Positions 32,169 through 62,299 of a stretch of 64,000 nt of DNA are shown one piece after another (the first letter of the stretch is position 1; each line of letters opens with the position of its first letter). Below the pieces are notes generated by a model that saw only the letters and a list, made by a program, of their open reading frames with translations, did no database searches and had not been told where the DNA came from. The DNA lies in contig OZ022581.1 in NCBI GenBank assembly GCA_963669155.1, positions 165,157 through 229,156 on the forward strand, in the 5' to 3' direction. This stretch comes from Arbacia lixula. Its lineage: Eukaryota; Echinodermata; Echinoidea; Arbacioida; Arbaciidae. The position numbers and the translations under genes were made by a program.

Positions 32169-35100
32169 ATGGCCATTCCAGTACCCAAATTTTGGAAACC
32201 AGGTAAGTATACCTTAATTACAGAAAAGGGAAAGTTATAACATTCCAGGTTACCTGCTGTGAGAAATCTTTGCCTGCGGCATGATTTTGGCACTAAGTTT
32301 CTGATTTTGGCACTAGGCGTAGATCATTCACATATTCATCCACCTCGTACCAGGTATCCATTTATACTCCAGGGTGGAGAGCAGCACTTTGAATAAAGTG
32401 TCTTACGGAAGGATACCAATGCCATGGTTGAGCATGAATCTGGGACCTCAAGATCTTCAGTCACGGGTCACATCCACTATACCGCGACACGTCAGGTATG
32501 CCCAACTCTTCAATGCCACACTGGTATTGCACGTGAATCCTATAGAGTGTGCTGAGCAGTCTCTTTAATTAAATTTTCCCCTTCACTTCTTCCCACATGC
32601 ACAGGTACTGCGGCACCCGGTGAGGGACTGAAGGAAGAGAGAACGACAGGGAGTGGGGAGGGAGAGAGTCAGTGTGTGGTGTACAACCGCAATGTCTCAC
32701 TCTCCATTGAACAACAGCGACAGAGGCTTCCAGTCTTCAAGGTACAGTTACCTTGAAAACTTTTAAAATAACATTCTCATTACCATTATCATGAAGCTGG
32801 GTAGAAGGCCAATGGGGTTTTCAAGGCCTGGAGATGTAAGGCTGAGTTAAATATTCATTGAATGGAAATATGGTCATATTTCACAATAGTGTAAAGTTTA
32901 TGATATGTTTATCACTGAGAAAGAGATCCCAAAGTTACAGAGCTCTACCCTCAAAAAACATTGCGAATAATGAAACTGAACATTCTTCTTGGAATATTTT
33001 CAAAATCCTTTAAATCATTTTATGTAGCACGAGCATTGCTGCATGTGCCACCTTCAAAAAAAATGAAATGATCATCTTCCCCTTGCCACTCTTGCCTCTT
33101 CTTACCAACAATGTCATCATTTTATTTTAAACACCCATTATAACTGGATTTCTCTGATTCCCATAGCGTAAACAAAGGGTTTATACATGGATTTGTTCCT
33201 CCTCTCCCGCCTCCAGATTTTAGCATTGCAACCACATCCTTTACGTACTCGAGACAAATATTCAAAATTACTTTCTTCTTCCTCTTCTTTGCCGCCTCCT
33301 ACCATCACTATCATCACTTACAACTAACCATATGAACCGATTGGCTCTGGAATTGAATGATTCCCATGGACTAAACACTGGTAATGAGAGAGCTTCCCAT
33401 CTCCACCTTACAGCATCGGAACCACATCCTGTACATGGTGGAGAGGTACCAGACTCTGGTGGTGGTGGGTGAGACAGGGAGCGGGAAGAGCACCCAGCTA
33501 CCCCAGTACCTCCTGGAGGCTGGCTGGGGTGCAGAAGGTCATGTGATCGGGGTCACTCAGCCCAGGAGGGTCGCAGCTGTCACAGTAAGTTTGAGTCATC
33601 ATAAAATATGACAATACACTGGCTAACCCTCTCTTGCTCTCTCTCTCTGCACTAGCATTTAGGGTGGATACACACTACAAGGCATTTCATGGAGCACGCT
33701 GACGTGTACTTGAAGAATGTCTCATGTACAAACTAGCTGCCAAGAGGACAAATGTGAATTCAGCCACCCGAGATCTGACTCTAGACAATGTACCCAGACT
33801 GTGAGAGGAATTCATTAATGACCAAATCCATCCCAAACATTGCTTTCCTTGTGTTTCATTATCAAACCAGGCCAATATCCAGTGATTACATTTTTATTTA
33901 TTTATTGGACATTTCAAAGTTAGCTGTTAGAAAGCAGCTTAAAAAGAGTGAGGAAAATGGGAAAAATAAGATCCGGATTATAGATGTATAAAAGGGATAT
34001 TCGAATCAGCCCAATATCATTCGGCATTGTCACTTTTTATGGGCAAAAGGATGTGGGGCATTATTTTTTGTCACTTGACTGCGAATTAATGTCATTTGTA
34101 TCAATGTAATCATGTTGAAAAATTGCAAACTGCTGTATAAAGAATCTGTATTTTAAAGGATATTCCCTGAGGCGTGAACTTCCTTGGACTCTCAGCATGA
34201 TGAACAAAGAATGCATCTTTAACTGAACATTCATTTTATTGTCTCGCCCACCGGAGGTGAAGGCGAGACTAAGGGATCCAAATGGCGTCCGTCTGTCGTC
34301 CGTCCGTCGTCCGTCCGTCGTCCGTCACAAATGTTAAAGTTTACCTGCAAGACTCTCTTATGATCCATAACTTGGCAACTGTTACAGCAATGGCAGCCAC
34401 ACTTGGTTGATAGAAGCACTAGGGGTATCTTCATGTTATGGTGTTGTCAGAGGTCATGTGATGATGTCAAAGGTCATTTGAGGTCATATATTAAAGAGTA
34501 TGTGCAAGACTCTTTTTTTCTATGTTAAAGTTTACCTGCAAGACTCTCTTTTGACGAATAACTTCACATAGGTTGCTTGGATTACAACCTAACTTGGGTC
34601 ATAGATGCACTGGGGGTACCTTCATGTTATGGTACCGTTGGAGGTCACAGGATAAGGTCAAAGGTCATTTGAGGTCATACGTTAAAGTTTACCCGCAAGA
34701 CTCTCTTTTGACAAATAACTTCACATGGGTTGCTTGGATTACAACCTAACTTGGGTCATAGATGCACTGGGGGTACCTTCGTGTTATGGTGCCGTTGGAG
34801 GTCACAGGATAAGGTCAAAGGTCATTTGAGGTCATACATTAAAGTTTACCCGCAAGACTCTCTTTTGACAAATAACTTCACATAGGTTGCTTGGATTACA
34901 ACCTAACTTGGGTCATAGATGCACTGGGGGTACCTTCATGTTATGGTACCGTTGGAGGTCACAGGATAAGGTCAAAGGTCATTTGAGGTCATATGTTAAA
35001 GTTTACTTGCAAGACTCTCTTATCACACATAACTCATCACATGTTGCTACAATGGCAATCAAACTTAAATGATGGATGCACTGGGGGCACCTGCATGTTA

Positions 35101-41100: not shown

Positions 41101-44100
41101 TTTTGTACTCTATGCCACTTTATATTTTCCAGCATAACCTTATAAGACTTTAATTGCTTTTCAACTTTAGCTCCTGTAATGGAAAGAATGATTTAATTCT
41201 TTGGTCACCACTTTGGTAATATTTGCATTAAGGAACATGTTTGGTAAGACATGCAGAGTATGTAATGTCCATTTAAAGGCAAGTCTACATAGCCATGTCA
41301 GAATAATGGTACTTGGGCTGTGTCGCATAAAGTTTGGTAACAGAGGGACTTGTACTGGACTCTACATGAATTGCTGAGAGCTCATTGGCTTTCCACCTAT
41401 GTGGTTACATTAATGAAGAACAGTGTGAAACATGGTTGTGATGTGTTGATGAATGCCTTTTCATACAGAGCTAACATAGTTGTGGTGCGTAACAATTGCC
41501 TTCAAGATTGTCCTTGTTTGTTTGCAGACAAATAGTAAATCGATTTACATTTTTCATACAGGAACGAGCGAAAAGGAGATTTGGAGCTAAGGAGGGAGAC
41601 CACTTAACTCTGTTGAATGCCTATGAAGCATTCCTCAAGGTAACAGTTTAACTCTTCGTGTGGCTGCTGTTTTGTCAGCAAAAATGCACACATATTACAT
41701 TGGGCAGCAAGGGGCAGAAAGGGTCCATAAAAAGAAATTAAACTTAAAATGAAAGATGCATTTTTGACTAAATGCTAGATGTTTTTTTTTTTAATGAGGG
41801 AAGAAAATTGCAGCTATGGGCCGTGTAAGGTATTTGAGAGTTTACAGATTTTAAACTGCAAAGGTAAATAGAGAAGTTAGATGGATCAGGAGAAGCTTTA
41901 TAATATGCTGACTAATGTGTGAGTAGAAAAAATCTGAGCTCTTTCTGTGATAGGCAACATGTGTGCTTCTTTATAGAAATTGTTGACCTTGTTTTGTTCA
42001 TTGCATCAATCTTGAAGTACCGTAAGTATTACAATTGATGTGCCAAAATATATTGAACATTTTTATATGATTTTCAGATCTTATTTAATGGTGGTACCTA
42101 CCTTTGAATGACTGTAGTAAATTATAATTTTGCTTGTATTTTCATCCTCTTCAGTACAAGAAGAATTCAAAGTGGTGTCGTCAGAACTTCTTGAATTATA
42201 AAGGTAAAGTCATGTTTCATTTTTCTCAGCAATAGTAGATACAAAATCAATCATCACTGAAAATTTAGTACAAACTCTAGCTGTCCATGAAATGATTACC
42301 AAGTCACCTGTTATTGTTGTTTGAAAGTTGGGCCTGCCCCAATACTCTGAAAGAAAGAAATATGCTCTTTAAGATAATTAGTGATTTTGCATGATTTACA
42401 TCACAAACAAGAACTGGAACAGGAAAAGAAAGGGAAGACGGGGAAATAACAAAAATGGAGATCAGTTTATTTCATGCTATTTATTTCATGTATTTAGGGC
42501 AGACCATGAAATTGCTTTCAAGCAATCCTGCATAGAGTACCGTAATTGTGAGTTCATATGTGCATGTTGTCAAGACAATTGGTTCTCAACCATGTAGGAC
42601 GAGCAGACAGAGATGTTCACGTTCACAGCGAGGACTCATAGGTGAAGTGCCTGACACTAGCATGCTAGACCATGTCAGATGAGTGAAACTCTACCTTCAG
42701 TAATGTTGTTTAGAACCAGAAACCTGCATAATGATGGATACAGTGACTTTGGTACTCCATGATACACCAAACCTGTGCAGACATTGTACTATGACAAAAA
42801 CTCTGCTTTCCATCCAGGTCTGTGTCGAGCGGTGGCCGTCCGGGAGCAGCTCAAAAAGCTCCTTAAGAAGTTCAAGGTCAAGATGGTGTCAAGCGAGGGC
42901 GACATAGACATCATCCTTCGCTGCATTGTTGCTGGCTTCTTTCCCAATGCAGCCAAGTACCACCCGAGCGGGGAGTATCGCACTGTCCGTGACAACCACC
43001 CACTCCACATCCACCCCTCCTCCATCTTGTACACCGAGTTCCCACCAAAGTGGTGAGCTGTAGTTCCTTTAAGATTAGGCAGTAGGGTTGCCCTTTACTA
43101 TGTCAAACAAATCAGATTGTGTCATTACCATAGGAAATGGAGGAACATAATGTATAAGAACTTCCCTCACAATATTGATCCTGGGCACCGACTATATTGC
43201 TCGCTAGATTTTAAGTGGGCTTTGGGCGACCAGTCCAAAATCTTGCGGTTCCTGGGCAAATCAACAGAAGTTTGTTGCGCGTCGGCCGCAACACCGCTCA
43301 ATGATTTTCCGCTAAAACGCAAAAAAACAGCTGGAAAGAAATTATCGCGTACTGCTCGCAGTCAAACAAAATTTGTTACCAGGTAGAGAGCATGCGCAGT
43401 AGCGCCAAGGGATAAAATAGTAAATAGAGCATGCGCAGTGCTCCCCAGGAAAAAATAGTAAAAACTATGCGGAACTGAGGCAGAGATAGTGAAATTATTT
43501 CGTATTCTGCGAGCATCAATTGACCAATCACGTTGCTAGAATACTCATGAATATTCATAGAAGGGATATAATAATAATTGCTATAGCACACCTCATGACT
43601 CTTTGTGAACCAGTGATGTGTTGAGGCAAGTGGATCCCTGCTGACTGGTGCTACAAGGTATAGGAATATAGACAATGATCGCTATGAAATGGGGTGTTAA
43701 AACGTAAACAAGGGTTGTTTTTCACTGAGCCTGCAAGGTTCATGCAGCTGTAACTGAGATTTCATACATGTTGCCGTTAACAGTCTGGCCGCAGCGTGCG
43801 CTATAATGAGCTCAGCGGTGCGCATTTATACATATTCTCGATCCAGACTTCCGGGACAAAATCCATGGCGAGATGTCGCGATATATTGCGAGGTTTTGAC
43901 AGGGCAATTTTTAAAGTGCCTTGCATCAAGGCTAATTCAGTGGACATGGCGAAATGACGCGGTAAGTGAATCTACGATTTTTCCTCTAAATTTTGGTATA
44001 TAGATCGTCATATTTCCGGATATTTTTGTTTATCAAAATTGAGGCAAGATATTATGCCATTTTCGGTGATTATTTCCTCGTATTTTGAAGTAGTTTTGCA

Positions 44101-47100
44101 TTTTGCTAGCTCCTGACTGGTATAAAAACCGTTTTGTATTGAAATTTCTTACGTGAAAAGATGAAATGTCGCTTTGTGATGCCATCGGGGATTTTGATCG
44201 AATCACCAGTTCTTTTGTCTTAAAAATCAGTTTGAAAATGACTTAAATATCCTATTTGACCGGAAGTAGCCTTCGTTAGCTTTGTAGAATTGGTGAAACC
44301 GCGCGAAAATTGTGAACGAAATAACTAGTGTCTAGTCCCGTACGTGTATTTCCGTGTTATGTTTTTGGTATAGTAATGGGGTTATGTGTGGTCGACATGT
44401 CTTTTAAAAACATTTAGACTGCTTTGATTACCTTCGACTCGTCCTTTTAAAAATTGTAGACTGCTTTGATTACGTTAAATCTAACTTACTTGAGGTATTT
44501 GTACTGTACTTGATCCCCGAGCCGCTGAGCTGATTTAACTTTTGAAATTGAGAGTGGAGAGAGTGAGAGACTAGATCATGTCATAGGCATATAGCCTATA
44601 GGTAACACTACTTTTTCTGTTCACATGATTTACAGGCTGCCACAGTGCTCATCCTTAAAAATTACTGGATTTGGCGATTCTATTTTACGTGGTGTCCAGG
44701 AGCATCTTCCCTCTCTTTCACACTTTCTAGAACTTAGTTTGTATTTGGATTGGGATATCAATTTTTTTCCTGGAGCATCTATCTCATCCTTACGTAATCA
44801 CATTTCAAACTTTGAAGATAATTCTCATTCACATATCATATTAATACACATAGGAACAAATAATCTTCAGAATAGCATCTGGGAGATAGATAATAAATCA
44901 TTTGCGGAGCTGTATTACACTGCGCGAGAGAAGTTTCCCACAGCTGATATTATTTTCAGTGTTATTTTACCCCGTTGGGATTCAGAAGATTTATACACGA
45001 AGTCGAGATACTATAATAATAATTTACACAAATTGTGCTCAAGTTTTTTCAATTGCTATGTGGTAGATGCCACTTCCCCCTTTTTGTGCAGTGATAGGTT
45101 TTTTCATTTTGATGGTGTTCATTTAACTCTTGAAGGGAAGTCAGCACTTGCTTCTGAATTCACAAATTTGATATCTCAATTTGTTTACTACCAAAACTTC
45201 AAACCCAAGCAAACAATTAGAATACCTAAAGAATTGAAAATTTTGATTAATATTTCCCGAAGTTCCCGTTCAAAATCAGCTGTTCAACAACCAATCCTCT
45301 CAGAAAAGGAAAAAGCCCTCATAAAATACAGAAAAAGGGAACGATATGGAAAACCTTACATTAAACCGAAGGTGGAACAACCAAAGAGAAAAAAAAAGAA
45401 AGTTGTAAAAAAACGAGATCCAGTGTTGCTCCCTCCTCCCCCTAAATATCACGAGCCATCATTTCAGAACCTTAGCCTCATTCCATATACAACATTCCCA
45501 ACACAATTATCATGCCCCCACACATACTCCTGTTCCCCACTCCCCAAGTCACCTACTCCATATATAACTTCACGAAAGAAGGCCAGAGAAAGGAAGAGGA
45601 GGCGGCAGAGGATCAAGAAGCACCGGAACAGGAAGAAGGTGTGTAGGTCTACTAACTTTGGTGGCTGTGCATGATTATATTTTGTGGTCTTGGGGCAGGG
45701 TGTTTTAAATGATAGGGTAGTAAAATACATGACCATAATTTTTTTTTTACATTTCTCTAACTTCTTTCATGGATGCAGTTTGGACTGGCCTTAATGTTTG
45801 ACTGAGAAATTGGTAAAGTCCTTTTTCGTCATTTTAGTTGTGATTAAAGTGATCTTGCTCTGCGAAAAAAACACACATTTAATTTGACTTAATTAAGAAA
45901 TGTTCTGTATGTAATATTGACATTTTTGTAAGGAACATTTTTTTCTTTCAGTTTTACTAATGTTTTGCCTAAATGTTTTTTTTTCACCTTAACCACAGAT
46001 CAAATATGAGGATGTCCACTTGTGTGATTCTCCACAAGTAAGATCCTCTCCTCTTCATGTCACTCATCCAGTCGCACCTGTAGCTCCAGATCCTCATCCA
46101 CCAGCAGTTCCACTTTCTCCTCTTCATGTCACTCGTCCAGTCGCACCTGTAGCTCCAGATCCTCATCCACCAGCAGTTCCACTTTCTCCTCTTCATGTCA
46201 CTCGTCCAGTCGCACCTGTAGCTCCTGATCCTCATCCACCAGCAGTTCCACTTTCTCCTCTTCATGTCACTCGTCCAGTCGCACCTGTAGCTCCTGATCC
46301 TCATCCACCAGCAGTTCCACTTTCTCCTCTTCATGTCACTCGTCCAGTCGCACCTGTAGCTCCTGATCCTCATCCACCAGCAGTTCCACTTTCTCCTCTT
46401 CATGTCACTCGTCCAGTCGCACCTGTAGCTCCTGATCCTCATCCACCAGCAGTTCCACTTTCTCCTCTTCATGTCACTCGTCCAGTCGCACCTGTAGCTC
46501 CTGATCCTCATCCACCAGCAGTTCCACTTTCTCCTCTTCATGTCACTCGTCCAGTCGCACCTGTAGCTCCTGATCCTCATCCACCAGCAGTTCCACTTTC
46601 TCCTCTTCATGTCACTCGTCCAGTCGCACCTGTAGCTCCTGATCCTCATCCACCAGCAGTTCCACTTTCTCCTCTTCATGTCACTCGTCCAGTCGCACCT
46701 GTAGCTCCTGATCCTCATCCACCAGCAGTTCCACTTTCTCCTCTTCATGTCACTCGTCCAGTCGCACCTGTAGCTCCTGATCCTCATCCACCAGCAGTTC
46801 CACTTTCTCCTCTTCATGTCACTCGTCCAGTCGCACCTGTAGCTCCTGATCCTCATCCACCACCAGTTCCACCATCAATCGCACCTCTAGCTCCAGATCC
46901 CCATCCACCACCAGTTCCACCTTCAATCGCACCTCTAGCTCCTGATCCTCATCCGCCACCAGTTCCACCTTCAATCGCACCTCTAGCTCCTGATCCTCAT
47001 CCACCACCAGTTCCACCTTCAATCGCACCTCTAGCTCCTGATCCCCATCTGCCACCAGTTCCACCTTCAATCGCACCTCGTGCAATATTGTTCAACAAAA

Positions 47101-50100
47101 ACACAAATGTTTCGTTGGGGTGAAAGAAAAGCTTACCAAACATAAGCAGCCCTGTGGGAATTTTTCATGCGGACCATGTCGCCTTTGTCAAAAAACATCT
47201 CACAAATACACCCATTTTAATTTAATTAAGTCTGAAATGCTAAAAGATTTAATCAAATCAAAGTTTACAGACATTTCAGATTTTTCTTGTATATGTAACA
47301 GTTGCAGGCAAAAATATTCAAAAAAGTTGAAGAATGAGTCCTATACACCAGAAAAAAGTAGAAGAAAAATGAAGGATTCCCCATGCTTTTTGTCAGTATA
47401 TTTAGATTGTGATTTAGCTGGTGCAGTTCAGACACAAGGCAATGTCTCTCAGTTTAATGAAATATTTTCATTGCAACTTGAAAACATACCTGAAACTATA
47501 TATCTTTGTAAGTTTCACAGGGCACGCTTTTTGAATTTTTCTGTGAAGAAGAACAACATTTGTGCTGCCTGTGATTGTCAGCTAAGTGGTAAGAAATATA
47601 TAATCACTTGTTTATCCACAGAAGGCATTGCCAAATTAAGCCAGATTAATGAAAATCTGTCTATAAAAGAACATAACTTTATTTGTTCTTCATGTTATTG
47701 TTTTGCAAATCGTAAAGGCCAACAAATAAAATCACTTGATGATGTTAAAAATGAACTTCAGAGGATATCAATGCAATATGAAGAAGATTCTGAAGAAACA
47801 GATATAAAAGATATCATTTCAAAATGTGTAAGTGCTACTTTAATATTTGTAAGTGAAATATGCAAAGCTGAAAATGGCTTCTTATTATCAGATGCATTTG
47901 ATTTTTATAATGTTTCTGTGAAGAAAGCATGCAAGAGTGATCTTCTCTATGGTAGGGCATTAAGGTCGAAACCGTGGTTATTATCAAAAATTCTTGATAG
48001 ATTTTCAGACATTTTGTGTGTTCACACATTAGCACTAAAAAAGGGAACCTTTTTGTATGTGCGTGATATTTCAGTGCCTGACATGATTAGGTCATGGCAT
48101 AATTCTTGTGCCAAGATAAGAGCTCAAAGAAAAAAATATGAATTGCAAACAGATTCATCTCTTGATACTGCAGATGACAGACCTAAAGAAGAAAGTTCTT
48201 CTGTTGTTTCTCAATTTAATGAAATTTGTTCAACTTTTAATACTCACCTTCATAAGCAAGCTAAGGATATAAATGAAATTTTTTTGTCAAATCCTCTCTC
48301 ACTTCAAACTTTTGAATTCGGGGCTGCTGATATTCTGTTTCACCCCTATGTTTGGAATTGTGTATGTCTTCTAACAGCTAGTACTGACGAATTGAAATAT
48401 TTTAATAATACAATGATGTATTCTACTCTTGATAAACATTTGGATTTCCCTAGTGATAAAAGTGCAGCTGGTCAAAAAAGAAAAATAAGGAGAATAGCTT
48501 TAATTTTTGTAATGCAATTTGTTCTTAATGATGAAAACAACTATCCATTCCACATCATTATTGCTAATGTAATTAAACGTATATCACATTCAACAAAGTT
48601 GGTTGAAATATTTAATAGATTAGGATTGTCATGCTCTGATGACACTTTATCAAGATTTTTGCAAAGGATTCAAGATATCCGAGAGGGCTCAGGTGTTTTA
48701 TCCAATCTTGACCTTTCTTATTTAACATGTGTGTCAATAGACAATATCGATAAATTAGCTTCCTTTGCTGCAGTAGTAGCAGATTCCTCGCGAAGTTATC
48801 ATGGCACTTCCATTATGGCTCAGCAGCCAAAACCAGTTTCTGAGGAATTGAATTCATCTGAAGTATGGAGTTATGATAAAGATGATAGTAGTAAGATTTC
48901 ATCAAAAAATAAACAATTAAAAAAACCAAGTGTTCGCAGGAAATTGCCCACTTTTCAAGATAGTAATATTCCTAGTAAAAGTGACTTTTCTATTCCTCAA
49001 TATAAAACATATATAAGGAACCAGTTATGTGAGGATACTTTCTTTTTATCTGATTCTGAGGGCAAATCTGCAAATGATATTCTCTTGAATTTAGTGATGT
49101 ATGTTGCACAGAGATATGTATTTGTAAAATCAGGAAAGAACACTATAATACCTAGTTTTAAATCTAAATTAGCATTACAAGGTGACAAATACACTGAGCA
49201 ATCAAAATTTTCATATTTGTATGTTTTGAATGAGAAAGCTGACTGTCCATCTACCATCAAGAAGGCCTTATTCCACCTCCAGAAATCATTTTGTATAAAT
49301 GAAAAAATGAATCATTTAATTGTTGCTGGGGATGGTGCTACTGTTAGATTACTGTATGATCTTAAGCATGAGTGTGGCCAATCACTAGATTGGGTTATTC
49401 CTTTTCTTGGAGACTGGCATGTTCTCAAAAACTTCCAGGAAGTGATAGTTAAAGTATTTTGGGAAGCTGGCTTAAAAGATTTTGCCAAAGCATCTCATAA
49501 AAAAATGACATTACAAAGCTTAGCCTCGTGTTCAAACTTCAAAAGAACCCATAGGTTTTTAATGCAAGTATATGAAGCAATTTTTATGAATCAATTATCA
49601 TGCTTTTTGGAGTATCGAGCTGGGAAGGAAATTGATATTTCCAATGACAAGTTTATTTCAGATATTAATGATTGTGTATTAAAGTTATCTTTCAATAAAG
49701 GCCAGTTTAGTGGGGTGGATGAATTTGTAGATGCACAAAATAACCTTAAACAAGTGACAATGATTCCTTTCATGGAAGAACTTTCCACTTTTTGCAGTGA
49801 TATGTCTGAAAAATATGAAACTTTCAGATTTTGGAATGGTTTTTTACGAAAAGACATGTTATCATATATTAGTTTGTATATAGCCATGAGGGAAAGAAAT
49901 TGGGACTTACGAATGGCTGCCCTTAAGAGTATGGCTCCCCTTTTTCATGCCTTCGATCGGCAAAATTATTCACGTTTAATACCATTACATATAAGTACTT
50001 TGCATGCCTTGCCTTGTTATGTTTTAGACCATTTCAAGAATGGTTCTTTTGTGTCAAATATCAAGGGAACAAATTATTCATCTGTAGCATTAGATGAGGC

Positions 50101-53100
50101 ACACGAGATGCTAATTAATAAGGATTGTAAGATGGCACTGTCAAGTGGTCTTCCAACACACATGGAACAGTTAGTAGGTAGTATAGAATACCAAGCCCAA
50201 TTATTGCGAACATTTGAAGATCAATTGGGGATTAATAATAGTGAAACCTTACATAGGGATTTACATTGGTCAGTTTTTCAGTCTGAATTCAGCAATGTTA
50301 AATTATATTTTGATTCAATATGCAAAACATCCATGTTTCATTCTGTTCAAGATGCCAGTTTATACCATGTTGTCTCAAATGTTCAAGCTACCCCTGCACA
50401 ACAAAAAAGTCTTATGTCATATAGGGAAATAGGTAAAGATTCATATGAATCTTACTGTAAGACCAGAATTCTAAATGATACATCAGTTAAAAAACCTGTA
50501 AAAAGAAAATTCCAATTAAAGACATTTGCTAAAGAGAAATTACGGCGGAAAAAAGTAACTGATCTTGAAAAGGAGAAGAAACTTATTACCCGCTGTTACA
50601 AAAGATCAATCGCCTTTTCTCGAGAAACTAAAACGCCAATTTCTGAACTTTGTCAATATGCTGAATACCCAAGGGCTATTTGTAACCAGGATGGTTTACC
50701 ACACAAAGGTACAAAATCAGTTATTTATGACTTTTTTAACAAAAGATATTCATCAAGTTATGAAATAGTGTCCCCATCTTTCAAGTTTGTGTCTTATACG
50801 TGCGTGATTGTAGAAGGCATGAATATAATATATAGTTCTCCCCTGAAAAATCTAAAAACATTTGAAGAATATGCACAATTTCTGGTAGCTAGATGGGTGT
50901 TTTCTTTTTTCAAGAAAAATGTAAAAGAAGTCAGGATCCTCTTTGATCAAGTAGGAACACAGGGTATTTCTCCAAAAGATGTAGAACGCAGCAGAAGGGA
51001 TAAAACTGAAGGAGAATGTTATTATTATGAGTCACTTGATGACAAAGTCCCTCTTCCAAACCAATGGAATAATTTTCTTAAAGTTCGCCAGAACAAACAC
51101 ACCTTATGTCGTTACTTGTCAAATAAATTTATTGAGCTTGTAAAAAATGATATTGAAATAAACAGTGGTAAAGTTTTTATTACTTCTGGAGGATTTCATG
51201 TCGGAATTGAGAGTTCTAGTCAATGGACAGGTGTTTCAATAAGTGAGCAAGGCATTGATCATCATAATATTGTCCATAATCACGAGGAAAGTGATACACA
51301 AATATGGTTACATGTTAATGATACTCCATGCAATAATATTTTAATATATTCTATTGATCGAGATATCGGTGTGATAGGACTTCCCTTGAACTTTGGTAAT
51401 AAACATGTCACAGTGCAATATAGTGCCCGAGCGGGGGATGAAAAATATCTAAATCTCAATTCATTACAGTCTGCATGTGACCATGATTCTGATTTGGCAA
51501 GTTTGATAAATAAGCAGTTAAATGTTAGGAAGATTCTTCAGGTTTTATATATCACGTCAGGTTGTGATTTTGTTTCATACTTTGCGCATATAGGGAAGCC
51601 TACCTTTTTTAAATTATTTTTCCAACATGCACATTTCATTACTGGATGCTACAGTAATACACAAGGTCACTTAGCTCAAACTGAATTGAATGTTAATTCA
51701 GATGATGGTTTAATGTCTTTTTATCGCCTTATTATGTGCATATATTACCATGTTAACCGTTCTTGTCTTCATAATTACAATTCGATTATTGATCTATACA
51801 ATAGTATAGAAGATTCTGATATTATGTCACGGCATCATAAGGCTCTGGATATAGTACGTTTAGCTTCATGGAAAGGTGAATATGAAGATGATCTGCTCCC
51901 TTCTAATTCTGCTTTGAACCTTCACTGGTTAAGGAGTTGTTGGGTATCAACAGTATGGGATGAAGTTAACTCTCCAATTTTTACATATCCAAACATTTCT
52001 TTTTATGGATATAATGTAACAAATCAAGATGATAAGAACAAGGTCAGCATTATTTGGGATACAGAAGAAAATATTAATCGCATTAGAGAAAATGTTATAT
52101 ACCTTACACGAGGCTGTGCTTGTTCTAAGAGCAAATGTACAAATAGGCGTTGTAAATGTGTTAAAGATAAAAGAAAATGTGGCCCTGGTTGTAGATGCAA
52201 ACACTGTGAAAATGTTCCTAATGTAACTATGCCAATGCAATTTACATCGACATGTGACACCACAACAGAGTATTCAGCTGATCTTGATAATGATGGTGAT
52301 GATGCTAGTGATGCTAGTGATGATGATGATGATGACGATGATGATGATGATGTTGAGGATGATGATGATTCTATTGTAAGCAGTACTTTAAGTATCCTTT
52401 ATGATGAAGACATTGAAAGTGGCTTGGAAGTTGATATCCTGTCAAAAGAATATGACAGAGAAAGCACAGACTCTGAATATGAAGATATGGAAATATGATG
52501 CTTGATGTTTTATATTTAACCATCGTTTGGTTTTGTGGCTTAAGTTTAATTCTATATTTTATAGAATGTGCATCACGGTCATTTTATTTTCAATCTTTTG
52601 TGTTATTGTTCAAGCCTCACATGATGTTCAAATTGTGTTTCATGTGTGACTTACAAAGAGACGCATGCATGTATAACTCATTCACTGCACAACAACATAT
52701 TTATTATTTTTTGTATCTAAAAGTTTGCCAAAAGACATTCTAAGATTACTTTTTTATCAGGAAATATTCTCGCAAATATTCTCAGACATGTGTGTGAATC
52801 AAAAAGGGAATATGTGAGTAACATCTCTTCTTTCAAGTTAAGTATTTTTGTTACATAATTTATTTCAGAGAAAAAAATATATGTTATCTTCTTTTATGTA
52901 GTTTTCACTTCACATTCAAGTTGTTCTTAATTTAGTTTGTACATGTACTTGAAAGAAATTGCCAAAGAAAGTGCAAGAATTCTTGCTTTTAAGAATGTAA
53001 ATGCAATTATAAGAGATATCTTGCCATGTACAGTATCAATAAAGTTTGTACTTAGAAGGTAGACATTGTGACATGAAGAAATAATACTTTGGATACATTA

Positions 53101-56100
53101 TATTCTCAGTCACAGTTATGAAGTGTACAAGTGTACCTCCTGGGACACTGTAAAATATAAATGTAGGCAACTTTGTGATTTGTACTACAGTGTGTGATGT
53201 AGTTACCATGGGCCATGTTGTAGGGCCCATACGATAACATTGCCAGCATTTCAATACCTCATGTAAATTGTGACAAGTCAGGTATTCAAACAAGAGATGT
53301 ACAGAAGTTTTAAATGTTTTTGCATGCTCATCCACTGTCAGCTGTTAATAAAACTTGTCTTGCCATTTGCAGCACTATTTAATTCCATCTAGTACACCGC
53401 TCTTTTTTGTGCCCGATTTACCAATTACTTTTCAATGGATAGGCCTATGTGCTGTTGAGAATTGAGTAATAGTATGTGTGTAAGGGAAGAAAAATTACAG
53501 AAATATTAGAGGTGAGAGTGAGAAAGAGATACTAGAAAAAGAAGAGAAGAGTTAGGAGAGAAAGGAGAAAAGGAGTGAAAGAAACATGTTCAGAGAGAGG
53601 TGGGGGGGGGGGGGTTAAATGATTTTCTTAATGATACTTTAGAAATATTATTTACAATGCAAGGATGCTTTTTCAGAATACCAAGAGTGCATTGTGTGCA
53701 TGTTGGAGGGTGGGGTGTAAGTTTTCAATTTTGGTTTTATTTTTTACTGTCGAGCCCCCCCTCCCCCCCCCCCCCCCCACACACACACAATAAAAAAATT
53801 CTTTGGGGTTTTGGAGGGGGAACTTGTGCCCTTTCGTTGGGATCTATCACTTTATACCCTCATCTAGCGTGGATGAAAGTTTTAATTTACCAAAGAGATT
53901 TAATAATTTCATGCCAATACATGTAGTATTATATTATCGGTTAAAGTTCGATATTCCGAAGGCTTGGAAAACAAAATAAAGTTCATTTTTTCCAAGGGTT
54001 CGTTAATTCAAAAACGAAATAAAGTTAGTTTTTCCAAAAACGAAATAAAGTTCGTTTTTTCGAAGGTTCGTTAATCTGAAAACAAAGATTTGTTTTTTCG
54101 AAGGTTCATTAAAAGGGTTCAAACCTTATTTCATTTTTGGATTAACGAACCTTCGGAAAAACAAACTTTTTTTCGTTTTCAGAATAACGAACCTTATTTT
54201 GTTTTCGGACTAATGAACCTTCGGAATAACGCACCTTCGGAATAAACGAACCTTCGGAATAACAAAGCTTTCGAGTACATGTATTCGAACCTTCGTACTA
54301 AATGAACCTTCGGAATAAGAAGTGCTTCCCATACCATCATGGGTAAAATAAAATTGCTTAAACTACATTCGTCAGTTTGTGGTGTTAAACTTTGATTTTC
54401 ATTTCTTTATCACTTTATGGAGTATAAAAATAACAGTATCAAACATCGATCAGTACATGTTATACCAAGAACAGGAAGATGGCAATACAAACAGACAAAT
54501 ATCATAACTTCTAAAACGCCCTGCTAAACGACCCCGAGACAACGAACCACTTCCAAAAGTGATACACACACAATAGTCAACGAGTGGTGCAATAATGCAA
54601 GTCGGAGGGCTTTTGGTACCGGGGGTGCACTCGCTATTAAATATACCGTACGATTAATCACGATGGACAACAGGCGCGCGCGCAATGTTTACCTCGAGCA
54701 GTTATATGCGGAACTCGTGTGAAGCATTGTGGGGGACCCCCGGGCGAGATTCCGATCAAAGCATCGCGTTCGTACGGCGAGCAACTTTTCCTTCAGCCTT
54801 TTGGAACACTGGTTATATTTTGCTAGCTCCTGACTGGTATAGATTGTAGAATATTACATTTTGGCTACTTTTTACTAGAAAGAAGGTTTCTTGAGACTCT
54901 GAAGCAGTTATTTCGGTGAATCATGTTTAAAGAACTTAATTTTTAAGATGTTTTGTAAACGAGTAACAATACACATTTTCCTCCGATAAATCTCTTAGAT
55001 TTTCAAATATTTCTATGATTCACCTAAGATTTTCCTTAAGACAAACGAAATTTCATAGTTTTATCTCCATAACCCCGAAGATTTCATGGAAATGTGTCGT
55101 TTCTTTCCAGAGTTATTCTCTTGTGAATTTAGGTCTGTCATTGCTCATTACATATGCAGCGACAAAAGTTTCGTGCATACGACTTGTATAAATACGTGCG
55201 ATTGTGCAGGCGCTGCGGCTAGACTGTTAAGCTGTGTTTTTGCAAACATTTTCATTACCACCATTGAACCATGATGGGTGAACATTATAGCCAAATTATT
55301 GTTTCAGAATTCTTTATTGTATTAATAAACATTTCTTTTTAAACCTCTCAGTACAAAGCTAGGAAAAGCCTATTGACATATTACAATTTCCTACACCTAT
55401 GGTACTGAGGGGGATAGTCAAAAGATCTCTAATTTCCTACTGCAGGGTTGTGTACAATGAGGTCCTGCAGTCGAGTCGGGACTACATGAGAGATGTGACT
55501 GCTGTGGACTCTTCCTGGCTGTATGAGCTGGCTCCACACTTCTACCAGTTTGGAACGGTGAGTACAAGCAGGCAATCAAACATGGAGTTTCAGGGGCGAC
55601 TTTTCAAGCCTGTCATGTGAGAGCTACACCAAACAATGTTTTGTAATATTCCTGAAGGGGAACAAGGTTCTTCACAAAGGTTCTTTAGTTATTTGTGGAG
55701 GCTTTCTTTTACATTACAGGGAGTAATTTACCCCAAGTTCACTTCATTGTAGAACAAATACTCATCTGCTTCTTTCACTTGCTAACAAACTATCATATCT
55801 GTTTAATGAAGAGTTCCTGAAAACACTTTAAAAGGTACCAGAGACAGACTATCAGAGAACTCTGAAATATAAAGAGCAGCTTCCTAGGGACTTGTGAACA
55901 CATATCATTACCAGGGTTGCCAGGTCGCGTCTAGTCTTGACGCTCCTTGGTCTCCACGTTTGTCACGGTTGAGAAGATTCTCTCTACAGCAGCGTGGCTC
56001 AAGTAAACATTGCCAACTCCTTGAATGGTTGTTGGCCCGACTTGCTCTTGTAATGGAGTACTCCAGACTAGAAGGTGGCTGTATCAGATGGAACTTTTCC

Positions 56101-58272: not shown

Positions 58273-59394
58273 TGACTTTGTTACGTTAACTCTGGGTGCA
58301 GAATCACCTAGGGAGGCTTCAAGCTTCTGCTCAGTATATTGAAGAACATCATTTGTATAGTTTGGTAGTGATGCTACATGTATTTCAATCTGTGTTAGAA
58401 TATGTCTTGTGCCTAGTCAAACACATATTGCAGTCTCCTCAGGATTGGGCTTTGTTTTATCAAGAGTTATAATTGATTTGAATCAACCACAAGTCCAATT
58501 CACTCTCTGCATGTATTTCATAAAACGCAGAAAAGCATATAATGAAGATTGTTGAAACTTGGATGAAAATCAGACGGACCATAAAGATTTCAAAACAAAA
58601 AAAAATATTGTCAGTAGCTCTCGAGATATGCCAACACATTACACTAGACTCTTGCTGAACTGCCCTTGTGACATATTGTGCTGACTTACTACTGTTCTTC
58701 AACAAAGTGTATGATTATGCTATATACATGTACAATGATGAATGCATCACCAGTTGATTAGTGAGATCAGCAGTGAATTATATCAGAGTTCATGTTTTGT
58801 ACATTAAATCTGGAACAGAGCATGTGCTAGGTGCACATTTTCATCTGTTCACATTTTCTATGATTGTTTGTGTATGGAATGGGCACAAAGATATTTAGTG
58901 TCCTTTTATACCAAGATGTGAATAAATACACCAGAAAGTGACCATAATCATTGTGTATATTTCCTGATTTTGTCAATGTAAAATCATTGATGAAGTAAAT
59001 CAAGTATTTCAAATCAATTTCATAACATTCTTTGAGACAGGGTGGTCCCCGGTGTAGAAACACTACATGTTGGGTTCAGAAAGTGATTTTGAGCCACACA
59101 TTCATTTACTGCACCACCCGTTAACTCAATATCAGTCTGAGGCTATTATTCTTGTATAGCCACGTGTTCCATTATTGTGTACCACACATCCAGCATAGAT
59201 ATCTGACAAAAAGTGACAGTGTGCCTTTTTGAAGTATGCCTAGATTTTCTGGTGACCACCTTGCTTTGAGGTTTATTTACCATATAAAAATTGAGAAAAA
59301 GATCTACAAGGGGAATTGCATTTCAGTGAAAATCTTTGGATTTGTCACAGGTGTGGTAGGGACAACCCTCCTTCCAAGTTGTCCTAATATGAGG
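58273..59394. other. Intergenic, no feature recognised
   Basis: AT-rich sequence between DHX35 and the next gene. Short frames on both strands show no family resemblance or splice-bounded structure. Confidence 0.5.
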
Positions 59395-59890
59395 CAATAC
59401 CCTTACAAAAAAGTATTATACTATTATCATGATATTATCATGATATTCACCAAAATATTATGATTTTATCATGATATTCGCAAAAGTATCATGATAGTTG
59501 CAGAAATACTATGATATTATCATGATATTTACCAAAATATTATGATTGTATCATGATATTCGCCAAAGTATCACGATAGTTGCAGAAATACTATGATATT
59601 ATCATGATATTTACCAAAATATTATGATTTTACCATGATATTCGCAAAAGTATCATGACAGTTGCAGAAATACTATGATATTTTCATGATATGCGCAGGA
59701 CCATGATGTTATCATGATATTAACAGAAGTATTATCATGTTACCATGATATTTGTTAGAATACTATATGATATTGGCAGTTATATCATGATATTTCCAAA
59801 GATACCATTTACAGAAGAACCAAGATATCATGATATTATCAGATTATGATGTGATCATGATATTTTCACAATACCATGCATGATGCTAGC
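59395..59890. repeat. AT-rich repeats of the palindromic word ATCATGATATT
   Basis: ATTATCATGATATT and its variants with ACCAAAATATTATGATTTTA and TATCATGATAGTTGCAGAAA recur about every 55-115 bp. TATCATGATA is self-complementary, so both strands carry it. Confidence 0.85.
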
Positions 59891-59924
59891 ATTTGTCATG
59901 ACATTTACATTTACTAAGTTGTGT

Positions 59925-60770
59925 GTGTGTGTGTCTGTGTGTATGTGTTTGTGTGTTTCCATCATGATAAAATTCAGCAAATATCATGATATGAATGATG
60001 ATACTTGATAAATATTGTGATATGTGTCTGTCTGTGTGTCTGTATGTCTGTCTGCGCGTATGTGTGTGTCTGTCTGTGTGTTTGTGTGTGCATATATGTG
60101 TGTTTGTATGTGTGTGTTTGTATGTGTGTGTTTGTGTGTAGGCCTACGTGTGTGTACGTCTGTGTGTGTGTGTGAGTAGGTGCGTGAGCGGATGTGTGTG
60201 TGCGTGCGTATGTGTGAGTGTGTTTACGTGTGTGTATGTGTGCGTGTGTGTGATTGTGTGTGTGTGGGTGTGTGTGTAAGTGTGTGTTAGTGTGTGTATG
60301 TGCGTGTATGTGTAAATGTGTGTGTGCGTGTGTGTGTGAGTGTGTGTGTGAGTGTGTGTGTGAGTGTGTGCGTGAGTGTGTGTGTGTGTGCGTGTGTGTG
60401 TATGTGCGTGTGTGTGCGTGTGTGTGTATGTGCGTGTGTGTGTGATTGTGCGTGTGTGTGTGTGTGTGTGTGTAAGTGTGTGTGAGTGTGTTTGTATGTT
60501 CGTGTGTGTGTGTGTGTGTGATTGTGTGTGTGCGTGTGGGTGTGAGTGTAAGTGCATGTGTGTGAGTGTGTGTGTGTGTGTGTGTATGTGTAAGTGTGTG
60601 TGTGTGTGTGTGATTATTTGTGTGTGTGTGAGTGTGTGTGTGCGTGTGTGTGATAAAAAATAATAAAAAAATATATATATATTTTTTTTAAAGTGTGATG
60701 TGCGTGTATGTGTGAGTGTGTGTGTGCGTATGTGTGTGTGTGTGTGTGTGGTGTGTGTGTGTGTCCGTCC
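59925..60770. repeat. Long (TG)n-rich microsatellite
   Basis: GT dinucleotide repeat interrupted by GCGTG, GAGTG and TATG variants for about 850 bp. It contains a short A/T block at 60654-60692. Long poly-Cys-Val and poly-His-Thr frames across it are artefacts. Confidence 0.97.
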
Positions 60771-60779
60771 GTTGAGCTA

Positions 60780-60935
60780 TTGTTGGCGTCCAATCAGAGC
60801 GCGAGCCACGCAGCTTGAATTGAGCGCCAGTTCATTTTGAGCGGCTGCAGTGTTGAGCGGTTGGGGCATGAAGGATCAGAATAGCAGTTAATTTTGGGGC
60901 AAAATGTGTCATCATCATCATCTCTGTCACATCAG
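60780..60935 (+). other. Probable first, non-coding exon and promoter of the downstream gene
   Basis: GC-richer sequence (CCAATCAGAGCGCGAGCC contains a CCAAT box) leads to a consensus donor ATCAG|gtaaga at 60935/60936. The match to a downstream exon at 63110 is inferred. Confidence 0.45.
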
Positions 60936-61410
60936 GTAAGACCTTATGGTATTTACTGTAGGATTTGTGAAGTTGAAGATACCATGTTTCTTACATAATT
61001 ATTGTCACATTCACACTCACATTACTAGTTAGCTGTACATAAGCATACATACTGTTCCCATGTATAAACAATGGTGTTAGTATTAGTAATATACCTGCAA
61101 GTTTTCCTGTCGTTAGTGTCGACGTTTCTCTACTCTTTGAATTTGTATGTACTGTTTTAGGTGCTAATTAATCTACTCTTCCGTGATATTCTAATGTAAA
61201 TTGCTATTCAAGTAAGTTTTATGAGACTCTAGATCCTAATTTATAAGATAAAAATCAAACTGTTCTTGACTCAAGTTAATTTGGGGAGAGGTGCTGGCCT
61301 GAATCTTGTCTTACTGGGAATAAGGTAGCCCTTTCGCTCCTGCCTAGCGTGGGGTCCTACATAGTATGGGCGCTAGTTCATAAGTGTATCCATATACTTT
61401 GGCAATTATT

Positions 61411-61500
61411 TTATGAATTTGAACCCTAAACCTAACCCTGAACATAATCCTGGTAAGAGACCTAACCCTATAGATCTACACCTAACCCTGACCCTGGCTT
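61411..61500. repeat. Degenerate CCCTAA-type repeats
   Basis: GAACCCTAAACCTAACCCTG, then GACCTAACCCTATAG and CCTAACCCTGACCCTGG, resembles interstitial telomere-like repeat. It is too degenerate to call a telomeric tract. Confidence 0.4.
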
Positions 61501-61511
61501 ACTGCGACCAG

Positions 61512-61590
61512 TGGTTTGGTAAGTGTTTGGTAAAACGGCTCGGTAGCAATCACAAAAATTCTCTTACCAAGTCACGCAGTGAGTGGGCTT
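61512..61590 (+). repeat. Partial copy of the 62300-62772 repeat, left end
   Basis: GGTTTGGTAAGTGTTTGGTA and AAACGGCTCGGTAGCAATCA then CTCTTACCAAGTCA match the left end of the repeat at 62300. A CACGCAGTGAGTGGGCTTCG phrase that follows recurs at 61741. Confidence 0.7.
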
Positions 61591-62299
61591 CGTAGTACTG
61601 AGCTTTGGAGCCCGGTGCGGTCACTCAATGTGAATTAGGGACTGCATGATCGTTACCAAAAACAAGGAAAAAGGGGTCAATTTCAAGCAATGTCCGCGGA
61701 CAACTGCGGACAAAATAATCCTCGAAATATAGAAAATAGTCACGCAGTGAGCGGGCTTCGTAGCACTGAGCTTTGGAGGCTTTGGAGCAACAAAGTCGTG
61801 ATTAGATCAGTAAATTTTAACAATTCTCTTTGCTCAAAACTTACATTTACGCAGAATATATACCTGAATTGTCTCGTGGCTGGTTTAAAGATGATATTTA
61901 TCCATGTTGTATTTTTTTTTAGTGTTTACAAACTAAAGTGGTTGATAATTTCATTGCGCGACGGCAGCTGTGATGGTGAAGATTAAAGCTTATGCACATG
62001 CATCAATTCCCATTTATTCGTGTACATTCTCGAACAGCCAAGATGGCAGCCTTGACAGAACGTATAATTTATTAGAAATATGAAGAGGGAATATCTAACA
62101 TTGATAAAAATTTCAAACATATAGTGCAATTATACATTCAATACATTTAGCCATTCACATGTGATCAATGTACTTGAATGCATTCATGTGTACGGGTCGA
62201 TTTATTAGTAGTCGAACCCAACATTCAAGGAAATTGGTGGCTGGATACACTAATGAACTAGCGCCACATGTATGTTGAACTATTGAAAACGCATCAACA

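What the first reader, a model, noticed from the sequence alone, without database searches (positions are those of the whole stretch)
43954..52498. Two-gene Academ-like element: SGNH esterase/proline-repeat gene plus a giant DDE-like/XPG-like/CXC protein
Seen: two intact same-strand coding units in DHX35 intron 15, one with GDS, GTNN and DxxH esterase blocks, the other with GDGAT and GDWH motifs, ExxDxQ / DRD / GCDF nuclease signatures and a nine-Cys CXC domain. Known: Academ transposons combine a transposase with an XPG nuclease (AcademX) or a helicase (AcademH). Inference: pairing with an SGNH hydrolase is unusual for a DNA transposon and may define an undescribed lineage or an auxiliary function.
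Basis: partly seen in the sequence, partly recalled or inferred. Interest (0 to 1): 0.85.

Follow-up and report, generated by a model that had tools for sequence, protein, structure and literature searches.

The report
DNA transposon with esterase-transposase gene fusion
A recently active animal DNA transposon carries an esterase-like gene usually seen in retrotransposons, and that gene runs into the giant transposase gene through a conserved one-base frame overlap, suggesting that the two are made as one fused protein by a ribosome slip or by splicing.

Summary
The features are real, but the element is larger than reported: window 43781-55226 (11,446 bp), in the DHX35 gene, with 16-bp inverted ends (one mismatch) and a TTAA duplication. 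Eight of eight window-family copies with both ends readable have a 4-bp duplication; seven copies with intact frames differ by 1-5 nt over 5.4 kb, so it moved recently. All 17 long copies that the large-protein search returned have the SGNH gene beside them, across families about 50% identical; 14 other DUF6589 places show none. The stated refutation (SGNH absent beside other copies) is rejected. New: these are not two independent genes. The SGNH exon is predicted to splice in frame to a Pro-rich tandem-repeat exon ending YTG GGG TRA; the large frame continues at -1 from that GGGG, and its first Met lies 19-90 codons inside conserved sequence. The junction Gly is the only one of 35 invariant Gly columns with one codon in all five families. 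I favour -1 slippage at GGGG-stop making an ORF1-ORF2 fusion; splicing is the rival. DUF6589 and CXC are confirmed; XPG and RNase H folds are not (poor models, no profile hit). Academ membership is plausible, not shown.

The parts
43781..55226 (+). whole transposon, 11,446 bp
   Evidence: eight other copies start matching at 43780/43781; seven of them end at 55226/55227 and one (C8) ten bases short; inverted ends
43777..43780 (.). left target-site duplication TTAA
55227..55230 (.). right target-site duplication TTAA
43781..43796 (+). left terminal inverted repeat CAGTCTGGCCGCAGCG
   Evidence: blastn of the left end against the window, one mismatch
55211..55226 (-). right terminal inverted repeat CGCTGCGGCTAGACTG
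44595..45638 (+). ORF1 exon 1: SGNH/GDSL hydrolase plus Lys/Arg-rich tail (true start not determined; first ATG 44625)
   Evidence: PF13472 over cut-off; five-family alignment keeps GDS, GTNN and DxxH
45639..45998 (+). predicted phase-0 intron AAG|GTGTGT...CCACAG|ATC
   Evidence: sequence; AAG|GTR donors near the end of this frame in the five families, acceptors read in the window family, C16c/C10a and the C16a group
45999..47123 (+). ORF1 exon 2: Pro-rich tandem repeats (69-bp and 48-bp units), ends TTG GGG TGA
   Evidence: TRF; length 849-1491 nt, always a multiple of 3, in the 8 of 9 copies where it could be measured
47117..47120 (+). GGGG run directly before the ORF1 stop: proposed -1 slip site
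   Evidence: YTG GGG TRA in 5 of 5 families; unique synonymous conservation
47117..52498 (+). ORF2, 1793 codons from the junction Gly (open frame starts 47042)
   Evidence: similarity between families begins at the Gly-Val of the junction
47121..47239 (+). ORF2 start with conserved GPCxxC motif, up to the first Met codon (47237-47239)
49304..50245 (+). DUF6589 region (GDGAT, GDWH; DEAHE at residues 1018-1022)
50813..51601 (+). XPG-like motif series (EGMN, FDQ, HEESDTQ, SIDRDI, SGCDF)
   Evidence: key residues in invariant columns of alignment A2; no profile or fold match
52109..52213 (+). Tesmin/TSO1-like CXC domain
   Evidence: PF03638, 24.5 bits, cut-off 23.5

Best explanation
This is an autonomous DNA transposon (shown by ends, target duplications and copies) whose genes form one composite unit. 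A transcript has an SGNH-hydrolase exon spliced to a Pro-rich tandem-repeat exon (splice sites inferred). Ribosomes that stop at YTG GGG TRA make ORF1, an SGNH-basic-repeat protein. A minority, stalled with Gly-tRNA on GGG and a stop codon in the A site, slip back one base on GGGG (GGG to GGG) and continue into ORF2, giving an SGNH-repeat-transposase fusion (inferred). ORF2 carries Cys clusters, a DUF6589 core that I take to be the DDD/E transposase, XPG-like nuclease motifs and a CXC domain that I take to bind DNA; these would cut and join the CAGTC ends with 4-bp staggered target cuts (inferred). ORF1 would act as an abundant Gag-like partner that self-associates or brings the fused transposase to a target, with the esterase as auxiliary activity (speculative). 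The nearest known kind is Academ, subgroup AcademX.
For: Sharp shared left and right ends, TIR, 4-bp TSD in 8 of 8 window-family copies with both ends readable, of 9 examined. SGNH beside ORF2 in 17 of 17 long copies and beside the 9 of 9 ORF2 fragment places that the same search returned, plus an 18th pair from the DUF6589 search. ORF2 and SGNH trees share the 100%-supported C16c/C10a + C16a-group split. ORF1 stop at YTG GGG TRA in 5 of 5 families with all three stop codons used (TGA, TAG, TAA), ORF2 homology starting at that Gly-Val, first Met 19-90 codons later. Of 35 invariant Gly columns in ORF2 only the junction keeps one codon (GGG) in all five families, and of 18 invariant Val columns only the junction is GTR in all five.
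Against: No RNA or protein data. The 121 bases at and 3' of the junction fold no better than shuffles in 5 of 5 families (z -0.34 to 1.09), so the usual frameshift stimulator was not seen. YTG GGG is not a canonical X_XXY_YYZ heptamer. In the E. coli survey six tetramers were clearly shift-prone and G_GGG is not among them; G_GGG constructs gave signal above background, which the authors put down to initiation, not frameshifting (PMC4066793, section read). GGGGTRA also resembles a weak splice donor. In family C1b the ORF1 repeat exon(s) were not resolved (35 open codons upstream of the junction). Among the seven near-identical copies the 10 variable ORF2 sites are 4 synonymous and 6 nonsynonymous, too few to show selection. 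Nuclease and transposase folds were not confirmed.
Confidence: 0.6

Rival explanations
1. ORF2 is reached by alternative splicing: exon 1 (or another exon) joins an acceptor just upstream of the junction in the ORF2 frame, so fusion occurs without frameshifting; GGGGTRA may itself be a weak donor.
For: The element has at least one predicted intron. The ORF2 frame is open for 9-75 nt upstream of the junction, and AG dinucleotides stand at its start in C16a and C16c. GGG|GTRA fits a loose donor.
Against: It does not explain why the ORF1 stop sits exactly at GGG TRA in all five families, nor why TAG (a poor donor, GTAGG) is tolerated. The C16a acceptor candidate follows a purine-rich stretch. Donor use would remove the conserved start of ORF2. 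No splice-site scoring was run.
Confidence: 0.22
2. Two separate proteins: ORF2 starts independently by non-AUG initiation, reinitiation or its own promoter.
For: The two frames are separate and the first Met is not far away in C16b (19 codons).
Against: Conserved GPCxxC residues precede the first Met in 5 of 5 families, up to 90 codons in C16c/C10a. GTA at the junction in two families is not a usual start. It does not explain the synonymous conservation.
Confidence: 0.13
3. The element is not an Academ but an undescribed DDD/E superfamily with DUF6589, a PIN-like nuclease and CXC domains (a rival on classification, independent of the expression rivals).
For: No test here linked DUF6589 to Academ; no paper held both words (which ranks papers with both first; 20 of 352 listed); no fold or profile match.
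Against: 4-bp TSDs fit AcademX (3-4 bp TSD as quoted in PMC10045372), and the motif order fits the nuclease that the finding assigns to AcademX.
Confidence: 0.3
4. SGNH is a passenger host gene caught by chance, or part of a neighbouring retrotransposon.
For: SGNH capture by a Helitron is reported in platyfish (PMC4021074, search listing); the best PDB match is a LINE ORF1 esterase (4c1b).
Against: 17 of 17 linkage in long copies across families about 50% identical, purifying selection, shared intron and repeat-exon layout, frame overlap with ORF2.
Confidence: 0.03

Closest known systems
Academ DNA transposons, AcademX lineage
   Same: giant protein with a putative DDD/E core and an XPG-like motif series; 4-bp TSD (3-4 bp quoted for AcademX, PMC10045372, passages)
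   Different: SGNH-repeat ORF1 in a conserved -1 overlap with the large frame; the papers listed (titles and abstract starts only) and the passages of three of them mention no SGNH or frameshift in Academ; Kojima 2020 itself is not held
Esterase-bearing LINE ORF1 proteins (CR1/L2/RTEX, e.g. zebrafish ZfL2-1, PDB 4c1b)
   Same: SGNH hydrolase in the first frame upstream of the main enzyme frame; best PDB match E 1.4e-4
   Different: here in a TIR/TSD DNA transposon; no reverse transcriptase family among the Pfam hits of its frames; tandem-repeat exon instead of the coiled coil described for ZfL2-1
Bdelloid Vesta LTR elements and Penelope-like Athena with GDSL ORFs
   Same: mobile elements that recruited SGNH/GDSL genes (PMC5408684, passages)
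   Different: retroelements; in Vesta the GDSL is a third ORF, not fused to a transposase
Bacterial IS1/IS3 -1 frameshift transposases
   Different: those use mostly A- or U-rich slip sites; here GGGG-stop without a detected structure, in an animal
Kolobok lineages with accessory enzymes (KolobokE, H, P, D)
   Same: a DNA-transposon superfamily diversified by added enzymes (PMC9587614, passages)
   Different: no SGNH named in those passages ('esterase' 0 occurrences in that paper)

Membership tests
SGNH/GDSL hydrolase | profile match above cut-off | tested here: met
   PF13472 40.5 bits vs 32.9
SGNH/GDSL hydrolase | catalytic Ser (GDS), Gly, Asn (GTNN), Asp/His (DxxH) | tested here: met
   GDS, PGA, GTNN and DxxH conserved in the five-family alignment
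SGNH/GDSL hydrolase | esterase activity | not testable with these tools
   no assay
DNA transposon (cut-and-paste) | terminal inverted repeats | tested here: met
   16 bp, one mismatch; 15/16 in C1b and C16b; only CAGTC clearly shared by both ends in the C16a group; ends of C16c/C10a not reached
DNA transposon (cut-and-paste) | target-site duplication of fixed length | tested here: met
   4 bp in 8 of 8 window-family copies with both ends (9 examined); other families, 5 copies with both ends read: 3 have 4 bp, C18a 5 bp, C16b none
Academ (AcademX) | 3-4 bp TSD | tested here: met
   feature as quoted in PMC10045372
Academ (AcademX) | Academ-type DDD/E transposase core | tested here: inconclusive
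   DUF6589 match; model pLDDT 41, no Foldseek hit at E<1; no Academ reference sequence available
Academ (AcademX) | XPG nuclease | tested here: inconclusive
   motif order present and conserved; no Pfam/PDB/fold match; hhalign to T5 flap endonuclease P 0.59, worse than an unrelated control at P 0.29
Academ (AcademH) | helicase domain and 9-10 bp TSD | tested here: not met
   no helicase family among Pfam hits of the three frames; 4-bp TSD
Programmed -1 ribosomal frameshift | conserved overlap with re-pairing slip site | tested here: met
   GGGG before the stop in 5 of 5 families; not a canonical heptamer
Programmed -1 ribosomal frameshift | 3' stimulatory structure | tested here: not met
   z-scores -0.34 to 1.09 (pseudoknots not modelled)
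Programmed -1 ribosomal frameshift | fusion protein observed | not testable with these tools
   no RNA or proteomics

The most novel reading that the evidence does not exclude
An undescribed lineage of animal DNA transposons that works with a Gag-Pol-like logic: an SGNH-esterase/repeat protein is the major product, and a -1 slip at a stop-adjacent GGGG (a 'shifty stop' in the minus direction, without RNA structure) appends the giant DDE/XPG/CXC transposase. This would be a new kind of recoding signal and a first case of a DNA transposon built on a retroelement-type ORF1.
Probability: 0.5. Interest if true: 0.88.

Novelty: new variant of a known kind. Interest (0 to 1): 0.74.

Why it matters
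SGNH esterases have been discussed as helpers of retrotransposons that move as RNA-protein particles (PMC3905857, PMC5408684; passages). A constant SGNH partner in a DNA transposon argues that its role is not tied to RNA packaging. The conserved GGGG-stop overlap is a compact, directly testable candidate for a new -1 recoding signal in animals, and seven near-identical copies with intact frames make the element a realistic candidate for a transposition assay.

Tried and rejected
Rejected: SGNH as a chance neighbour (17 of 17 long copies). ORF2 start codon at the junction itself (GTA in two families). [quoted passage not shown]). AcademH (no helicase hit, 4-bp TSD). A downstream stem as stimulator (pseudoknots not modelled).

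Led nowhere: AlphaFold models of ORF2 residues 480-1135 and 1180-1690 (mean pLDDT 41.3 and 44.6) and Foldseek on both; PDB searches with ORF2 and its profiles; NCBIfam; viral contigs; hhalign to the T5 flap endonuclease, worse than control. The T5-like protein search was not used further. The host flap-nuclease search (PF00867) and a look at three DUF6589 loci without SGNH (C15, C6, C3) did not complete because the genome server was busy, so whether those elements carry a diverged SGNH is open. Paper searches 10 of 10 used.
Full report
WHAT IS THERE. The window holds an 11,446-bp transposon at 43781-55226 on the + strand, in the DHX35 gene: the frame at 42763-43056 just upstream matches DHX35 in PDB 9s2f (E 2.7e-32), and further DEAH-helicase exon-like frames lie near 33374, 36603 and 39476 (motif reading). 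The left end was found because eight other copies of this family all start matching at 43780 or 43781, and the right end because seven of them stop at 55226 or 55227 and one (C8) ten bases short. The ends are CAGTCTGGCCGCAGCG and CGCTGCGGCTAGACTG, an inverted pair with one mismatch. Of nine window-family copies examined, eight have both ends and all eight show a 4-bp duplication: TTAA, TACA, TGTC, TAGT, GAGG, TGTT, TGTA, AATA. The C8 copy lacks a recognisable right end.

COPIES. The large protein has seven copies with an open frame in the host genome, the window's included; they differ by 1-5 bases over 5382, at 10 variable sites (4 synonymous, 6 nonsynonymous). One more copy has a stop (C6:6025036) and one is decayed (C17). 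Eight further long copies fall in four other families 49-51% identical to the window's by the genome search; two of them (C20a, C18a) end earlier than their sister copies. The same search also returned ORF2 fragments at nine places. In the other families the ends are also CAGTC...GACTG where I could read both: five copies, of which C1b, C16a and C1a have 4-bp duplications, C18a a 5-bp one and C16b none. In the C16a group only CAGTC is clearly shared between the two ends; the ends of C16c and C10a were not reached. The genome search scores only the best candidates (26 of 1737), so counts are lower bounds.

SGNH LINKAGE. The SGNH query hits beside every one of the 17 long copies and beside the nine fragment places; an eighteenth pair is C6:2695762 (SGNH) with C6:2700012 (DUF6589). 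The genome search gave 36 DUF6589 matches: 18 lie in SGNH-bearing copies, and the other 18 fall at 14 places (13 if two neighbouring C6 matches are one) with no SGNH hit nearby at this sensitivity. Those 14 were not read, so a more diverged SGNH there is not excluded. SGNH is less conserved than ORF2 (30-46% against 48-55% between families) but the two trees agree on the deep split that both support at 100%. Within close pairs dN/dS is 0.17-0.22 for SGNH (three of four pairs; the fourth, C16a/C1a, has no synonymous change and two nonsynonymous) and 0.24-0.34 for ORF2 (four of four pairs); between families synonymous sites are at or near saturation.

ONE COMPOSITE GENE. The SGNH frame ends in a basic tail with an AAG|GTR donor in each of the five families, and where I could read the acceptor (window family, C16c/C10a, C16a group) it leads in frame, at phase 0, to a Pro-rich tandem-repeat exon. 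The acceptor in C16b was not pinned down. The repeat unit differs between the four families whose exon was resolved (69 and 48 bp in the window family). In the eight window-family copies where it could be measured the exon is 849-1491 nt long, always a multiple of three; the ninth (C17, decayed) could not be measured. In C1b the repeat part is broken into several short frames and I did not resolve its exons; the zero frame there is open for 35 codons up to the junction. The exon ends YTG GGG followed by a stop: TGA in the window family, C1b and C16b, TAG in the C16a group, TAA in C16c/C10a. ORF2 lies one frame back, and its similarity between families starts at the Gly-Val encoded by the same GGGGTR. 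The first Met comes 40, 32, 19, 90 and 63 codons later (window, C1b, C16b, C16c, C16a), beyond a conserved GPCxxC motif.

IS THE JUNCTION UNDER SELECTION AT THE DNA LEVEL? Yes, by this test: across the five families ORF2 has 35 invariant Gly columns and only one uses the same codon in all five, the junction GGG; it has 18 invariant Val columns and only one is GTR in all five, the junction Val. GGG makes up 14-21% of Gly codons in these frames. Fourteen other Gly-Val pairs exist in the five frames, one of them GGG-GTR. The five families are related by descent, so they are not fully independent, but synonymous sites between them are near saturation.

HOW IT MAY WORK. With GGG in the P site and a stop in the A site, a one-base slip back re-pairs GGG on GGG and the next codon is GTR in the ORF2 frame. 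[quoted passage not shown] Against it: no downstream structure better than shuffles, and in the E. coli survey G_GGG is not among the six clearly shift-prone tetramers; its signal was put down to initiation (PMC4066793, section read). Splicing remains the main rival. Frameshifts have been proposed for ciliate DNA elements (Oxytricha TBE, passage; Euplotes Tec2, a reference title seen); I saw none for an animal DNA transposon in the listings (15 of 21 papers listed; 10 of 32).

WHAT THE LARGE PROTEIN IS. DUF6589 and CXC are above their Pfam cut-offs. Both models rest on five sequences and are poor, so this is lack of evidence, not evidence of absence. No paper in the library holds both 'Academ' and 'DUF6589' by the ranking (20 of 352 listed). 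Academ is therefore the nearest name, not a proven membership.

LITERATURE. SGNH/GDSL genes are reported in CR1, L2 and RTEX LINEs, Penelope-like elements and bdelloid LTR elements (PMC3905857, PMC5408684; passages), and one host SGNH gene was mobilised by a Helitron (PMC4021074; listing). The listings (20 of 252; 12 of 27; 10 of 280; 12 of 126) showed no DNA transposon that carries SGNH as its own gene; I saw titles and abstract starts only, apart from the passages cited. The library lacks most subscription papers and Kojima 2020, and I could not consult Repbase, so prior mention there is possible.

Noticed in passing
44124-46000 and 52500-55227 (host places): At least 28 decayed relatives (about 90-94% identical at the right end) do not match the first 340 bases of the element; in the nine places seen most of ORF2 is missing.
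   Followed up: partly
L051, L052 (C2:23419500-23427420); L050: In two decayed relatives (C2, C15) the right end is followed by TAGGCACCTTCACCGCAG and an outer ...CCGACAGGCGAGACTG; in C2 the matching inverted copy was read on the left, as if the element lay inside a larger one with its own CAGTCT ends.
   Followed up: partly
46047-47079: The tandem-repeat exon differs in copy number (6-17 exact matches of the 23-aa unit in eight copies) between copies that are otherwise nearly identical, always in frame: very fast repeat turnover.
   Followed up: partly
C13:7282702-7283168 and C4:5388143-5388609: Two solo matches to the first 468 bases of the element (91%), possibly non-autonomous derivatives.
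   Followed up: no
53943-54321: AT-rich palindromic repeats (AACGAACCTTCGGAAT-like) in the 3' part of the element.
   Followed up: no
C15:15031240 and C17:12759128: DUF6589 in 1891-aa open frames without a detected SGNH: other giant relatives in the same genome.
   Followed up: no
59001-62000: Strong GC skew (about 0.36-0.39) outside the element.
   Followed up: no
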